A stretch of 43,851 nucleotides of DNA from Candidatus Parepulonipiscium sp. PG-Nuni2H_MBin01 (GTDB taxonomy: Bacteria > Bacillota > Clostridia > Lachnospirales > Cellulosilyticaceae): NCBI GenBank assembly GCA_001994995.1, contig MDJM01000005.1:1-43851 (forward strand). Reading direction: 5' to 3'. Made by a program: the position numbers and the translations under genes. The notes under the pieces are model-generated. The model was not told where the DNA came from and did not search any database. It was given only the letters and a program-made list of their open reading frames with translations. Shown here piece after piece: positions 1 to 16,182 of the stretch; within the stretch, counting starts at the first letter, position 1, and every line of letters starts with the position of its first letter.

Positions 1-99
1 TATACAACAACCGTAGGGACTACGGGGATAGCTTGGTTATGCTTAGTCGGTTGCGACTATCGACCAAGAACCCTGTGACTTTAGTCATGGGAGGTTCAG
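1..99 (+). mobile_element. IStron (IS605/TnpB-type) right end, partial
   Basis: This is the 3' end of an IS200/IS605-type element whose body lies upstream of the window. It shares the hairpin CCGTAG..CTACGG, the phrase GGGGATAGCTTGGT and the terminal segment AAGAACCC..GGGAGGTTCAG with the end of the element at 11573-12768, which is on the opposite strand. The terminal stem (tgactttagtca, 76-88) precedes the final TTCAG, whose last G is base 99. By family knowledge this segment is both the transposon right end and the 3' part of the omega-RNA that guides TnpB. In IStrons it also carries the group I intron 3' splice site. The 5' half cannot be seen, so whether this copy is intact is unknown. 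Confidence 0.75.
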
Positions 100-10552: not shown

Positions 10553-10999
10553 TTATTTATTATTATCTTTTTTCCTATTACTATACAACAAATGTTCAAG
10601 CGCAAGTCTATAACCAGAAAAACCAAAACCGCTAATAGAACCTATACAACTGCTAGCAGTCACCGAATGTTGCCTAAAAGCTTCCCTTTTATGAATATTT
10701 GATATGTGAACCTCAATTGTAGGTATGTCCACCCCTTTAATCGCATCCGCTATTGCATAGCTATAATGAGTGAAGGCTGCTGGGTTAATTACTATACCAT
10801 CAATTTTATTATGATAACATTCATGAATACAATTAACAATTTCCCCTTCAATGTTAGATTGAAAAAACGTAAGCTCTACATCTTTAACATGCTCTCTTAA
10901 CATCAACTCTAAATCATCTAGCGTTTCAGTTCCATATATATGAGGCTCTCGCGTGCCTAACATATTTAAATTAACACCATTTATTATACAAAAGTGCAT
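10553..10999 (-). CDS. aroQ: 3-dehydroquinate dehydratase, type II
   Basis: 148 aa, normal for the dodecameric type II enzyme that converts 3-dehydroquinate to 3-dehydroshikimate. Motifs: INGVNLNMLGTREPHIYG with Arg17 and Tyr22, FQSNIEGEIV, INPAAFTHYSYAI and EVHISNIHKREAFRQHS with His98. It lies between aroK (21 bases upstream) and efp, the order expected for aromatic amino-acid synthesis genes in Clostridia. Confidence 0.96.
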   Translation of the reverse strand: MHFCIINGVNLNMLGTREPHIYGTETLDDLELMLREHVKDVELTFFQSNIEGEIVNCIHECYHNKIDGIVINPAAFTHYSYAIADAIKGVDIPTIEVHISNIHKREAFRQHSVTASSCIGSISGFGFSGYRLALEHLLYSNRKKDNNK

Positions 11000-11020: not shown

Positions 11021-11491
11021 TTAGATTAGACCCATTTCGGTTAAAATTTTATTAGTCACTTCATATTCATTAAAATGCTCACATTGTACCGTTTGAGTGG
11101 CCAAAGCTTCATATAGTGGTACTCTCATATTATATCTTTGCTCAAAATTTTCCTTACAATCTGCTAAAGGCCTGTTTGTATCGTCTTTTACACGCTCATA
11201 CAACGTATTTACATCGCTTTTTAAATACACGCATTTATGCTTATTTAAAAAATCGTAACTTTGCGGATTAGTTACTATACCGCCACCAGTAGCTACAATC
11301 GTTGGCGCATTTTTACTTAACTCCACAAGCGCTTCATATTCAATAGTTCTAAAGTACTCCTCGCCATGTCGCTCAAATATTTGAGGGATAGTCATATTAT
11401 ATTTGTGCTCAACAAACTCATCACAATCTTTAAACGGTATACCTAAAACTGTAGACAACTGCTTTCCTACTGTACTTTTGCCAGCACCCAT
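11021..11491 (-). CDS. aroK: Shikimate kinase, 5' end cut by the IStron
   Basis: The frame from the ATG at 11491 gives 156 aa with the P-loop GAGKST at its very start. It also has the shikimate-binding segments FKDCDEFVE, FERHGEEYFRTIE and ATGGGIV, and the lid NRPLAD. The usual first beta strand before the P-loop (SIYLIGFM) is encoded, but upstream of this ATG. The frame stays open for 27 more codons and ends exactly at the IStron boundary (11572) with no ATG, GTG or TTG start inside. A complete enzyme therefore needs a start supplied by splicing of the IStron or from another joined exon. As drawn, the ATG-initiated product would lack strand beta-1 and is probably poorly functional. Confidence 0.85.
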   Translation of the reverse strand: MGAGKSTVGKQLSTVLGIPFKDCDEFVEHKYNMTIPQIFERHGEEYFRTIEYEALVELSKNAPTIVATGGGIVTNPQSYDFLNKHKCVYLKSDVNTLYERVKDDTNRPLADCKENFEQRYNMRVPLYEALATQTVQCEHFNEYEVTNKILTEMGLI

Positions 11492-11572
11492 AAATCCTAT
11501 TAAATATATAGACTTATGCGACTGTTTTAAATACTTACTAATGTTCTTATAAATATAGTGGTCAATCTGCTT

Positions 11573-11679
11573 CTGAACCTCCCATCACTAAAGTGACGGG
11601 GTTCTTGGGTAAAGACAACCAATGTTATCTAATTTACCAAGCTATCCCCGTAGTTCCTACGGTTCTTGTATTTATTATT
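11573..11679 (-). ncRNA. Omega-RNA scaffold / right end of the IStron
   Basis: Downstream of tnpB the minus strand carries the hairpin CCGTAG-GAA-CTACGG, GGGGATAGCTTGGT, and the terminal stem CCCCGTCACTTTAGTGATGGG before GGTTCAG. The same arrangement occurs at 1-99. By family knowledge this is the omega-RNA scaffold, with the guide taken from the flank beyond 11573 (AAGCAGATTGACC..). It overlaps the intron's 3' splice region. Confidence 0.65.
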
Positions 11680-12126
11680 CTACCTGAGCCTAAATCCCTC
11701 AGTTAATATATTCTTTGCTGCATTATAATCCCTATCATTATTAGATTTACATTCAGGACATTTCCACATTCTAATCGATAAATCCTTAACCTTAGCATTC
11801 TTATACCCACAGCAATTACATATTTGACTACTAGCATAAAAAGTATCTACTTTTACTATCTTTTTATCATGCCAATTCGCCTTATACTTTAATTGCCTTA
11901 CAAACTCACTCCAAGATACATCTGATATAGCCCTGGCCAACTTATGATTTTTCATCATATTAGCCACCTTTAAATCCTCAATACAGATTGTATCATTTTC
12001 TTTTATTAAGTTTGTTGAAAGTTTATGCAAAAAATCTAATCTCTTATTTCTTATTTTTTCATATAACTTAGCTACCTTAATTCGGTTTTTCTCCCAATTA
12101 GCACTGCCTCTTGGTTTTCGTGACAT
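11680..12126 (-). pseudogene. tnpB: TnpB (IS605 OrfB) C-terminal fragment
   Basis: 148 aa representing roughly the last 40% of TnpB. TnpB-like sequence continues 8 codons upstream of the ATG (LARLQRA) to a stop near 12151. The RuvC-II glutamate (CIEDLKV), the zinc ribbon (ICNCCGYKN..KCPECKSNN) and the RuvC-III aspartate (DRDYNAAKNIL) are present. The N-terminal wedge domain and the RuvC-I aspartate are missing. An omega-RNA-guided nuclease needs all three acidic residues, so this product should be inactive, although it might still bind its own RNA end. Full-length TnpB is usually about 370-400 aa. Confidence 0.85.
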
Positions 12127-12213
12127 TGCTCTTTGTAACCTAGCTAACGGTTAATAATATTGTTCCCTAATTCACAAAACAATAATCACCTAATAGGAAT
12201 AAAAATATATTTA

Positions 12214-12232
12214 AATAATAAATACAAGAACC
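12214..12232. repeat. 19-bp inverted repeat arm (partner 11661-11679)
   Basis: The plus strand at 12214-12232 reads aataataaatacaagaacc. The minus strand at 11679-11661 reads the same 19 bases without mismatch, directly after the tnpB stop. A small hairpin follows in both places (GAACC-ATA-GGTTC here). The tnpB fragment is thus flanked by inverted copies of the element's own post-tnpB segment. Confidence 0.8.
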
Positions 12233-12294
12233 ATAGGTTCTAGACTTTAATTTAAGAGGTTGTCGTTCACAACAGGACGCTACTCCTATTGCAG

Positions 12295-12768
12295 TTCTCT
12301 TATGAACTTCTTTATATTTCTATAAAGCACAGACTATATCTTCATCTTCACCCAATATATTTGCTCCTCTTTAGAAGAGTTTATATATACGTGTTAAGCG
12401 TCACCCACTTCCACTGTCAATAGCTTACAGTGTACTTCCCTCAAGAGGAATAGTCGTTGAAGTTTACCTTTCGGCCTTACCTGCTGATTGCCCATTTAAT
12501 ATGCTATCCTCCTCTATGAGGAGGTAAATAAACATAGTGTTTAGGATTTAACCTTGCACCATCTAACTAATTTTTTCTGCTTTCGCCACTTTCACGTTTG
12601 TACCATTTAAGGTACTGCGTTGTAGTTTAGTTAGCTTTAGGGGTTTCCAGCAATTCAAGTGATATTGGACGGTTTTTAAATCCGCCTCTACGTACACATT
12701 TCTGTGTACGCTGACTATGATGGGTTACTTACTCATGACTAAAGTCACGAGTTTGCGTAACCTATTTA
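12295..12768 (-). ncRNA. Group I self-splicing intron core of the IStron
   Basis: All four conserved group I elements are readable on the minus strand in order. P (12632-12660) contains TTGAATTGCTGGAAACCCC. Q (12481-12489) is AATCAGCAG. R (12451-12462) is CTTCAACGACTA. S (12332-12343) is GAAGATATAGTC. Pairings work: P3 is TTGAA/TTCAA, P4 is GCTG/CAGC, and P7 is GACTA/TAGTC. A P2 hairpin (GTACAC/GTGTAC, near 12690) follows a possible internal guide GTCAG (about 12706-12714). That guide pairs with the 5' exon TTGAT and ends in the expected U-G pair at the splice site. The 3' splice site should be the final G of the element (11573). Catalytic activity is not proven, but the core looks intact. 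Confidence 0.85.
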
Positions 12769-15453
12769 ATCAAATCCCTCTCCTGTAGTTGTAATAATTA
12801 CGTTGCTGATGTCAGTTCTACCTTTATTAAAAATTTGCGCTTTTAAATCCGCTTCATTCCCAGCTTCCACAAGCTCCGTTACTACATCCGCCACCTCTAA
12901 CTTAGTCACTTGCTCAACCGGAATACCTAAATATTCAGTTGCCGTAATCTCATTGCCAAACTCATCTTCATATTCCATTACCATAGAAATTTCATACGTT
13001 TTTGGGTCTGCGCTAGGAATTGTATACATAGTAATGTTTTTTACAATCATTTGGTCGGGGCTTAGATGGTCTATAAAAAATGTGTTACTGCCACCAACTG
13101 GCGTAAATACGCTGCCAGAATTGCCATCGCCTTGCTCAGTTACCATAATATTAGCTTTAAAGTTAGACACAGAAACTTCCTTATTAGTGTTTAGGAAACC
13201 AACCGTTAGTTCAAATTCCTCTCCAGCTTGTACAATTGTTGGCACTGATTGATACGCTCCAATTATTACTTTTGGCTTGCTTGTTTTATCTTCATTTTCT
13301 ACTTCATCTTTCTTATCATTTATTATGCTTACAGTTGCGTACTGACTGTAACTTACCGGCACATCGTTTAAAACGTATTCAACGTTAATTTCAATCGGAT
13401 GTGTGCTACTTGTAACAGAGTCAGAAGCTTGAAGCGTTACTGAGTATGAACTGCGTTGACCTGCTGCTAGTTCATTAATAACAAACATACTTTTTGACTT
13501 AGGCAAAATGCCATCAGCTGGCTTAATAGCAACCTTAACATTTTTAGCGCCATCTGGAGCGTAAATATCAAAGCCAATATTAAATTCTTCATTTACATTA
13601 TAGAAATGTGTGGGTTCTATTAAATTATCAATTAAAATCTCTCTATCTAACACTTCATCTTCCTCCTCCTCTTTATCTTCTTCGTTTTCAATACTCACAG
13701 TTGCGTATTGGCTGTAGTTTACATTTTCGCCATTTAGCGCGTATTCTACGTTAATTTCAATTGCATGCGTACTGCTGTTTACTGCGTCAGTAGCTTGTAA
13801 TGTAACTTCAAAAGGTCTAACTTCTCCAGCAGCAAGTTCATTTACCATAAAAAGATTTTTTGATTTAGGCAAAATACCGTCAGCGCCTTTAACTGAAACT
13901 TTAACATTTTTAGCACCGTCTGGGGCTACTAAGTCAAAACCTATGTTAAACGGTTGGTCAACACCGTAAGTGGCAGTTGGCTCTACAATGTTTTCTATAG
14001 ATAACTCAGTGTCTAAAACCTCATCTTCTGGCTCGTTAGAAATGTTTACTGTAGCATATTGGTTGTAAATTACAGTTTCGCCGTTTAAATTGTACTCTAT
14101 GTTAATTTCAATAGGATAAGTCGCGGTAGTAATAGCGTCAGTAGCTTGGAACAATACATCAAACGACTTAGAAGAACCTGCTGTTAGTTCTGGAATCATA
14201 AATAGATTTTGAGAACGAGGAAGAATTCCTTCAGCAGGATTAACAGCAACACGAATGTTACGCGCACCATCAGGAGCGGTTAAATCAAATTTAATTATAA
14301 AATCTTCATTAATGCTAAAAACGCCTGGCGGATTAGCTATGTTAGAAATAGTCACTTCCTTTTTAAGCGCCTCTTCTTCCGCTGAAACTGTTGTTAAATA
14401 AATTAATTGCACATCTTCATGAGTTTCGCCTAAGTCGTCTGTGTAAGTTAACCTAATTTGCTGAGGCAAAGTTTCGGTAGAAATATCGTTAACTTGAAGT
14501 AGCATATCTAGATTAAGCGACTTACCAGGCGCGATATTATCTAAATAACGAACGTTACTACCATCCATAACAAATACATTATCATTTTGAATAAGTTCAA
14601 GCTTAACATTTTTAGCTTCTATCATCCCTAAGTTTTTTAGAGACAATGAAACTGTTTTAGCTACACCTTGCTCAAACGCACTAGTGTTAGCTGCAGAGAT
14701 TTGGAACGAAGGCGGAGTGAAATTGCTTTCTACCTTAAGCGGAATTACAAAAGAAGCGCCGTCAATAGTTGCCACCAAATTGTGAATTCCACGCGGAACA
14801 GATTCGTCTATTGTAATAGAAGCTGTAACTTGCTTAGTTTGATTACGCATAATGGTAGGCACAGAAAGCTCTGACTTAGAAATCGCCATACCTTTAGAAG
14901 CGTTTTCATCTTGCCATGCTAAAGTCATAGTAGCTTTGTCGGTAGTTTGAGAGCCAGAATTAGTAACATCAATAGAAATTTGTTGGCGCTCGCCGGCAAC
15001 GACATTAATAACATTGGTAGAGACTACAACACCTTCTGCAGCAGAAATGTTAGAAGCGACAACATTAAGGTGAACGCTTCTTGTACCAATGTCGCCTAAA
15101 ACGACTTCAACAGAATTACCAGAACCATTATAGTTACAGTTAACTAAATACAACATATATGTAGAATCATCAATCGCGTTAACAAACCAGCCTTCACAAC
15201 TGCTAGTTGCACCCGACATAGAAACGTTACCTAAATTAAAATACTCGCGCGCCTCTTCAATATCGCCACGGATTTCAATACGAATATCAAAAACATCGCC
15301 ATTTTTAATTTGAGATGACGAAACACTAGAATTAGTAATAGTGTGAGAGCCTAAATCGAATTGTTCTTGTGCTGATACCGGAAAATAAGATATATGCGAC
15401 GTAGAATTAACTACCATTAAAGCACTTAAAAATATTGCCCATTTTTTATTCAT
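12766..15453 (-). CDS. Secreted repeat protein (COG1361/CARDB-like), 3' end cut by IStron
   Basis: 895 codons are readable before the stop, which is the first three bases of the IStron, so the native protein was longer. Residues 1-29 form a signal peptide (MNKKWAIFLSALMVVNS..VSAQ). Ig-like CARDB/NEW3-type modules follow, e.g. VVAGERQQISIDVTNSGS. Then come three tandem repeats of about 110 aa, roughly residues 358-715, each built on EP/PP..YxVxxxFxIxFDxxAPDGAxNVxVxVxxAxGILPxSxxxFxxxELxAG and ending SQYATVSI. Acidic linkers rich in E and D (e.g. EDKEEEEDEVLD) separate them. A further module follows. Proteins of this kind usually end in a membrane helix and sit beside a MacB/LolD-type ABC ATPase and permease; the ATPase is directly upstream, but the C-terminus and permease are absent here. 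Start: GGGGG 7 bases before the ATG. Confidence 0.85.
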   Translation of the reverse strand: MNKKWAIFLSALMVVNSTSHISYFPVSAQEQFDLGSHTITNSSVSSSQIKNGDVFDIRIEIRGDIEEAREYFNLGNVSMSGATSSCEGWFVNAIDDSTYMLYLVNCNYNGSGNSVEVVLGDIGTRSVHLNVVASNISAAEGVVVSTNVINVVAGERQQISIDVTNSGSQTTDKATMTLAWQDENASKGMAISKSELSVPTIMRNQTKQVTASITIDESVPRGIHNLVATIDGASFVIPLKVESNFTPPSFQISAANTSAFEQGVAKTVSLSLKNLGMIEAKNVKLELIQNDNVFVMDGSNVRYLDNIAPGKSLNLDMLLQVNDISTETLPQQIRLTYTDDLGETHEDVQLIYLTTVSAEEEALKKEVTISNIANPPGVFSINEDFIIKFDLTAPDGARNIRVAVNPAEGILPRSQNLFMIPELTAGSSKSFDVLFQATDAITTATYPIEINIEYNLNGETVIYNQYATVNISNEPEDEVLDTELSIENIVEPTATYGVDQPFNIGFDLVAPDGAKNVKVSVKGADGILPKSKNLFMVNELAAGEVRPFEVTLQATDAVNSSTHAIEINVEYALNGENVNYSQYATVSIENEEDKEEEEDEVLDREILIDNLIEPTHFYNVNEEFNIGFDIYAPDGAKNVKVAIKPADGILPKSKSMFVINELAAGQRSSYSVTLQASDSVTSSTHPIEINVEYVLNDVPVSYSQYATVSIINDKKDEVENEDKTSKPKVIIGAYQSVPTIVQAGEEFELTVGFLNTNKEVSVSNFKANIMVTEQGDGNSGSVFTPVGGSNTFFIDHLSPDQMIVKNITMYTIPSADPKTYEISMVMEYEDEFGNEITATEYLGIPVEQVTKLEVADVVTELVEAGNEADLKAQIFNKGRTDISNVIITTTGEGFD

Positions 15454-15507: not shown

Positions 15508-16182
15508 CTAAACCTTGATATTCTCAATATTGCCATCGCGCATTGTAATTACCTTATGAGCGTAATGAGCAATTTCATCATCATGAGAAACGATAATCAT
15601 AGTTTGATTATGAGCTTTAGCAATGCCAGTTATCATATCCATAATTTCAAGAGTCGTAGCAGTATCCAGATTTCCCGTAGGCTCATCGGCAAATAAAATA
15701 GTAGGATTGTTAACAAAAGCACGCGCAATACTAACACGTTGCTGTTGCCCACCGCTCATTTCTGTAGGTTTATGATGCAGACGTTTACTAAGGCCAACTT
15801 CTTTTAAAATTTTTCTAGCACGCTTTTCTCGCTCAGCTTGAGCAACGCCTTGGAAAATTAGCGGTAATGCCACATTTTCAAGAGCAGTTAAAGCAGGTAA
15901 TAAATTATACGATTGAAAAACAAACCCTATATACTTCTGACGGAAGATAGCAAGCTGAACTTCACTAAGGGTTTCGATGTTTTTCTTTTTTATAATGATA
16001 TTGCCTTTAGTAGGTTTTTCTAAGCCAGCTAACATATTTAATAAAGTAGATTTGCCAGAACCCGACGTGCCAAATAAGCAACAAATTTCGCCTTTGTCCA
16101 CAGTTAAATTAACGTTATTAAGCGCAACGATTTTTTCATTTCCCATTCTATAAATTTTTCTTAAATTTTTTACTTCTATCAA
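15508..16182 (-). CDS. ABC transporter ATP-binding protein (MacB/LolD type)
   Basis: 224 aa, a single nucleotide-binding domain. Walker A is GTSGSGKST, the Q-loop FQSYNLLPALTALENV, the signature MSGGQQQR (Met for the usual Leu), Walker B ILFADEP with the D-loop GNLD, and the H-loop IIVSHD. The FQSYNLLPALTALENV and DEPTGNLD forms are typical of the LolD/MacB subfamily, which pairs with FtsX-like permeases. It starts with TTG at 16182, five bases after GGGGGAG. It lies 55 bases upstream of the repeat protein and is likely co-transcribed. No partner permease is present downstream, because the locus is cut by the IStron. Confidence 0.93.
   Translation of the reverse strand: MIEVKNLRKIYRMGNEKIVALNNVNLTVDKGEICCLFGTSGSGKSTLLNMLAGLEKPTKGNIIIKKKNIETLSEVQLAIFRQKYIGFVFQSYNLLPALTALENVALPLIFQGVAQAEREKRARKILKEVGLSKRLHHKPTEMSGGQQQRVSIARAFVNNPTILFADEPTGNLDTATTLEIMDMITGIAKAHNQTMIIVSHDDEIAHYAHKVITMRDGNIENIKV

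What the first reader, a model, noticed from the sequence alone, without database searches (positions are those of the whole stretch)
11021..15453. IStron sits exactly at an in-phase junction between two unrelated broken genes
The secreted repeat protein stops on the first three bases of the IStron, right after TTGAT. The shikimate kinase frame is open from its P-loop back to the last base of the element, with no start codon. Removing 11573-12768 as a group I intron joins codon GAT to codon AAG without a frame break, giving a signal-peptide/repeat-protein/shikimate kinase fusion that makes no biological sense. Three readings are possible. One is recombination between two IStrons that were inserted in different genes. 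Another is a rearrangement in which the aroK exon now depends on splicing or trans-splicing for its start. The third is an assembly join at a repeated element. If real, the cell carries two split genes whose halves lie beside other IStron copies.
Basis: partly seen in the sequence, partly recalled or inferred. Interest (0 to 1): 0.78.

Follow-up and report, generated by a model that had tools for sequence, protein, structure and literature searches.

The report
Assembly misjoin across two IStron copies
Two different genes each carry a copy of the same self-splicing mobile element, and the genome assembly very probably glued the front of one to the back of the other; the missing halves of both genes sit on two other contigs that end in the same element.

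Summary
A group A IStron (11573-12768, minus strand) sits between the front of a secreted repeat-protein gene and the back of a shikimate kinase, in phase.

The window is the whole contig C5. The missing repeat-protein C-terminus and its ABC permease lie at the end of contig C60, on a 98-bp IStron 3' end identical to the window's. The missing front of aroK is chorismate mutase-AroE, at the end of contig C47, ending TTTGAT before an IStron 5' end. In eight relatives CM-AroE-AroK is one open frame followed by aroQ. In three relatives the repeat protein is one open frame followed by the permease. So both true genes are ordinary IStron-split genes.

Contigs C60, C77 and C81 break at exactly the same 98-bp 3' end, as a collapsed repeat in a short-read assembly would give. 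The in-phase join is not surprising: 87% of TTGAT sites in coding DNA here are phase 0, so about 76% of random joins would be in phase.

Real IStron-IStron recombination is not formally excluded without reads, but nothing requires it (about 5%).

The parts
12769..15453 (-). 5' part (895 aa) of a secreted repeat protein with CARDB/NEW3-like domains; ends at TTTGAT
   Evidence: ORF and Pfam; unbroken orthologues in three relatives continue into the C-terminus found on contig C60
11573..12768 (-). IStron, group A type: group I intron plus IS200/IS605 remnant, inserted after TTGAT, ending TTCAG
   Evidence: Rfam hit, TnpB fragment, repeated ends on many contig ends
12310..12715 (-). group I intron core (RF00028)
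   Evidence: 81.2 bits, gathering 50
12769..12774 (-). TTTGAT, end of 5' exon and insertion target
   Evidence: same hexamer before the element at C47, C28, C18 and C35
12712..12717 (-). predicted internal guide sequence UAGUCA, pairing with UGAU|UA (P1) and putting the U.G pair at the 5' splice site
   Evidence: RNA fold, z -6.9; same letters in C28, C47 and C18 copies
12731..12752 (-). hairpin inside the P1 loop, at the position of the left-end transposase hairpin of IS200/IS605
   Evidence: role inferred
11680..12126 (-). truncated TnpB (148 aa: OrfB_IS605 C-terminus and Cas12f1-like TNB domain)
   Evidence: Pfam
11573..11670 (-). 98-bp 3' end of the element, 100% identical at the ends of contigs C60, C77 and C81
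11024..11572 (-). shikimate kinase domain, C-terminal part of a CM-AroE-AroK fusion; stop codon 11021-11023
   Evidence: PF01202 1e-43; continuous with AroE in eight relatives
10553..10999 (-). aroQ (type II dehydroquinase), follows CM-aroE-aroK in relatives
15508..16182 (-). ABC transporter ATPase, upstream partner of the repeat protein in relatives

Best explanation
The genome carries several near-identical copies of a group A IStron, each inserted after TTTGAT inside a gene. One copy splits the secreted repeat-protein gene (ATPase - repeat protein - MacB/FtsX permease) and another splits the trifunctional chorismate mutase-AroE-AroK gene (followed by aroQ). The 3' end of the element is shared exactly by at least four copies, so the short-read assembler collapsed them. 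It extended contig C5 from the front of the repeat-protein gene, through the shared element, into the back of the aroE-aroK gene. The other two halves were left as the broken ends of contigs C60 and C47. In the cell each gene is presumably an ordinary IStron-interrupted gene whose transcript is repaired by cis-splicing. Shown: the partner halves, the shared ends and the intact orthologues. Inferred: that the join is the assembler's rather than the cell's, and that splicing occurs.
For: (1) The repeat-protein C-terminus (123 aa, VIDNKQIFGT...) and FtsX/MacB permease are at the end of C60, against a 98-bp IStron 3' end 100% identical to the window's. (2) CM-AroE, ending ...EIWYDSKFD at TTTGAT, is at the end of C47 against an IStron 5' end. 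(3) Eight relatives in the family have one uninterrupted CM-AroE-AroK frame aligning without a gap at the junction, followed by aroQ; seven of them have the preceding C47 gene nearby. (4) Three relatives have one uninterrupted repeat protein across its junction, with the permease after it; two of these also show the ATPase before it. (5) C60, C77 and C81 end exactly 98 bp inside the same 3' end, and C5's own left end shares 99 bp with C56, the signature of k-mer breaks at collapsed repeats; the full element body at high identity occurs only in C5. (6) The C47 copy has a small indel near its 5' end relative to the window's copy, so the window's element joins the repeat-protein copy's 5' end to aroK's 3' flank. 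(7) Control: the same pairing of contig ends rebuilds SpeA-SpeE (C18 + C24), whole in relatives at up to 77% identity. (8) Partial IStrons at scaffold ends were read as unassembled copies in the published survey (PMC4227781).
Against: No reads or coverage are available, so the join was not tested directly. A real reciprocal recombination between two IStrons would leave the same four halves. Contig C5 was extended through the repeat although comparable copies were left broken, and I do not know why the assembler did so.
Confidence: 0.93

Rival explanations
1. A real recombination between two IStron copies exchanged the gene halves, so the cell carries repeat-protein/IStron/aroK and the reciprocal aroE/IStron/repeat-protein-C junction.
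For: The four halves are all present next to IStron ends, as reciprocal recombination would leave them. All arms read in the same sense through the element.
Against: It would break a shikimate-pathway gene and an ABC system that are intact in relatives. No contig shows the reciprocal C47-C60 junction. The ends are exactly where k-mer assembly breaks.
Confidence: 0.05
2. The halves are separate in the cell and the aroK exon is expressed by trans-splicing between IStron transcripts.
For: The group I core and a predicted P1 are intact.
Against: No sequence feature calls for it; cis-splicing at the two normal loci explains everything. No trans-splicing of IStrons turned up in the papers read.
Confidence: 0.01
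3. A strain mixture: a minority population carries the rearranged junction and the assembler used it.
For: The assembly has 88 contigs and 3.3% estimated contamination; copy-to-copy recombination in a subpopulation is possible.
Against: No second version of the aroK flank was seen in the assembly, nor of the repeat-protein halves.
Confidence: 0.01

Closest known systems
CdISt1 and other group A IStrons (Tourasse et al. 2014, PMC4227781)
   Same: Insertion after TTGAT, 3' end TCAG, group I intron followed by an IS200/IS605 TnpB, frequent loss of ORF A, intragenic insertion with a stop codon at the element's first bases, partial copies at scaffold ends
Collapsed-repeat misjoin in a short-read (k-mer) assembly
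   Same: Shared fixed-length ends on several contigs, one body sequence, flanks that belong to different genes
   Different: No difference seen; the reads themselves were not available

Membership tests
Group A IStron | Inserted downstream of TTGAT, ATTAT or TTTAT | tested here: met
   TTTGAT before the element in C5, C47, C28, C18 and C35
Group A IStron | 3' terminus TCAG | tested here: met
   ...GGGAGGTTCAG at 11573
Group A IStron | Group I intron component, class IA2 | tested here: inconclusive
   RF00028 met with 81.2 bits; subclass IA2 was not tested
Group A IStron | U.G pair at the 5' splice site flanked by base pairs in P1 | tested here: met
   Predicted UGAU|UA with UAGUCA, z -6.9; a prediction, not a probing result
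Group A IStron | IS200/IS605-type ORFs | tested here: met
   Truncated TnpB with OrfB_IS605 and TNB domains; no ORF A in this copy, as in many known copies
Group A IStron | Self-splicing | not testable with these tools
   Needs RNA
Assembly misjoin at a repeat | The two flanks belong to different genes whose other halves end at the same repeat elsewhere | tested here: met
   C60 and C47 ends
Assembly misjoin at a repeat | Relatives keep both genes whole, each with its own neighbours | tested here: met
Assembly misjoin at a repeat | Raised read depth over the repeat and no reads spanning the join | not testable with these tools
   No reads available

The most novel reading that the evidence does not exclude
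Two IStron copies recombined in the living cell, so that the shikimate kinase exon and its AroE exon are now in different places and the cell depends on trans-splicing (or on another enzyme) for them.
Probability: 0.03. Interest if true: 0.7.

Novelty: not a real feature. Interest (0 to 1): 0.12.

Why it matters
It warns that genes split by IStrons look broken, and can be wrongly fused, in draft genomes: any two IStron copies in phase 0 give an apparently clean in-frame chimera, and TTGAT targets in coding DNA are mostly phase 0. Pairing IStron-bearing contig ends by the protein they encode is a simple way to detect and sort out such joins. If real, the rearrangement would have been a natural test of trans-splicing.

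Tried and rejected
A scan of GTDB contigs with the rejoined CM-AroE-AroK protein did not return this genome or close relatives and gave no name for the organism. I tested whether the in-phase junction is special: it is not. I looked for partners of other IStron ends: the N-terminal half of coaBC was not found, and none of the IStron 5' ends examined carries the front of the HindVP-type restriction enzyme. In relatives the Hsp70-like pair C28/C81 gave only distant Hsp70 matches, so that pairing rests on frame and family alone. Paper searches for IStrons, TnpB introns and repeat-caused misassembly gave the scaffold-end remark in PMC4227781 as the only directly relevant statement among the papers read. 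One Pfam call failed on a wrong frame and was repeated.

Full report
What is there. The window is the whole of contig C5 of an 88-contig draft genome. On its minus strand a secreted repeat protein (CARDB and NEW3-like domains) is open from 15453 to 12769 and stops on TAA, the first three bases of an IStron that ends at 11573. After the element a shikimate kinase frame is open from 11572 to 11024 without an upstream start, followed by aroQ. The element contains a group I intron core (RF00028, 81.2 bits) and a truncated TnpB. Folding the exon-intron border gives a P1 helix UGAU|UA with UAGUCA, which puts the expected U.G pair at the 5' splice site (z -6.9). Insertion after TTGAT and the TCAG end match group A IStrons (PMC4227781).

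Other copies. Searching the same genome with the element gave 24 matches, nearly all at contig ends. Contigs C60, C77 and C81 end with exactly the same 98 bases as the window's element 3' end; C47 and C28 hold its 5' end. The window's own left end shares 99 bases with the end of C56. Fixed-length shared ends are what a k-mer assembler leaves around a collapsed repeat (inference). The published IStron survey also found partial IStrons at scaffold ends and read them as unassembled copies.

The missing halves. The sequence after the 3' end on C60 reads, in the same phase, VIDNKQIFGTIGKGEIKNYQPTIIPHESG..., followed by an FtsX/MacB permease. The sequence before the 5' end on C47 reads through a chorismate mutase domain and shikimate dehydrogenase to ...EIWYDSKFD at TTTGAT. 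Joining C47 to the window's kinase gives a chorismate mutase-AroE-AroK protein.

Relatives. Eight genomes of the same family have this CM-AroE-AroK protein as a single frame with no stop, aligned without a gap at the junction, followed by aroQ; seven of them also have the gene that precedes it on C47 nearby. Three genomes have the repeat protein as a single frame across its junction. The permease follows it in all three; the ATPase precedes it in G004 and G014, and was not seen next to it in the stretch fetched from G010. No relative searched joins the repeat protein to aroK. The same method rebuilds a SpeA-SpeE protein from C18 and C24 that is whole in relatives.

Hybrid element. The IStron 5' end on C47 differs from the window's by a small indel near its base 13, while the window's 3' end equals that on C60, C77 and C81. 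So the window combines the 5' end of the repeat-protein copy with the 3' flank of the aroE-aroK copy.

Is the in-phase join meaningful? In 134 long ORFs of this genome TTGAT falls in phase 0 in 379 of 436 cases (87%) and never in the phase that would make TGA. Two independent insertions are both phase 0 about 76% of the time, so an in-phase chimera is the expected outcome of a random misjoin. The survey gives a reason why in-frame insertions may also be favoured: the stop codon at the element's start keeps ribosomes out of the intron (PMC4227781).

Verdict. Real recombination between copies would leave the same halves and cannot be excluded without reads, but it would break two systems that these relatives keep, and there is no trace of the reciprocal junction. 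The element itself looks like a new member of a known kind (group A IStron); the junction is very probably not a biological feature.

Noticed in passing
window 1-99: The contig begins with an IS200/IS605 or IStron-like 3' terminus sharing 99 bp with the end of contig C56: another repeat-caused break.
   Followed up: partly
G000:C47:45034-46095 plus window 11021-11572: Trifunctional chorismate mutase-AroE-AroK fusion, conserved in eight relatives of the family; the IStron sits in the linker between AroE and AroK.
   Followed up: partly
L035 (end of contig C57): coaBC is found only as its C-terminal half next to an IStron-like 3' end; the front half was not found in the assembly.
   Followed up: partly
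L030 (end of contig C77): C-terminal end of a HindVP-type restriction endonuclease follows an IStron 3' end, with a DNA methyltransferase-like frame after it; front half not found.
   Followed up: partly
L028 (start of C28) and L029 (end of C81): Probably one Hsp70-like gene split by an IStron, near other Hsp70-like genes.
   Followed up: partly
G010 (relative): 16 group I intron matches in one draft relative, 13 of them over the Rfam cut-off: IStron-like introns may be very abundant in this genus.
   Followed up: no
window 11544-11668: Sub-threshold match to RF02841 (Enterococcus sRNA Ref70, 38.5 bits, gathering 115) over the element's 3' end, possibly a TnpB guide-RNA-like end.
   Followed up: no
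L037 3079-4564 (contig C44): An IS200/IS605-like element with both a TnpA-like and a long TnpB-like frame, a possible source of transposase for the IStrons (named by eye, no family search).
   Followed up: no
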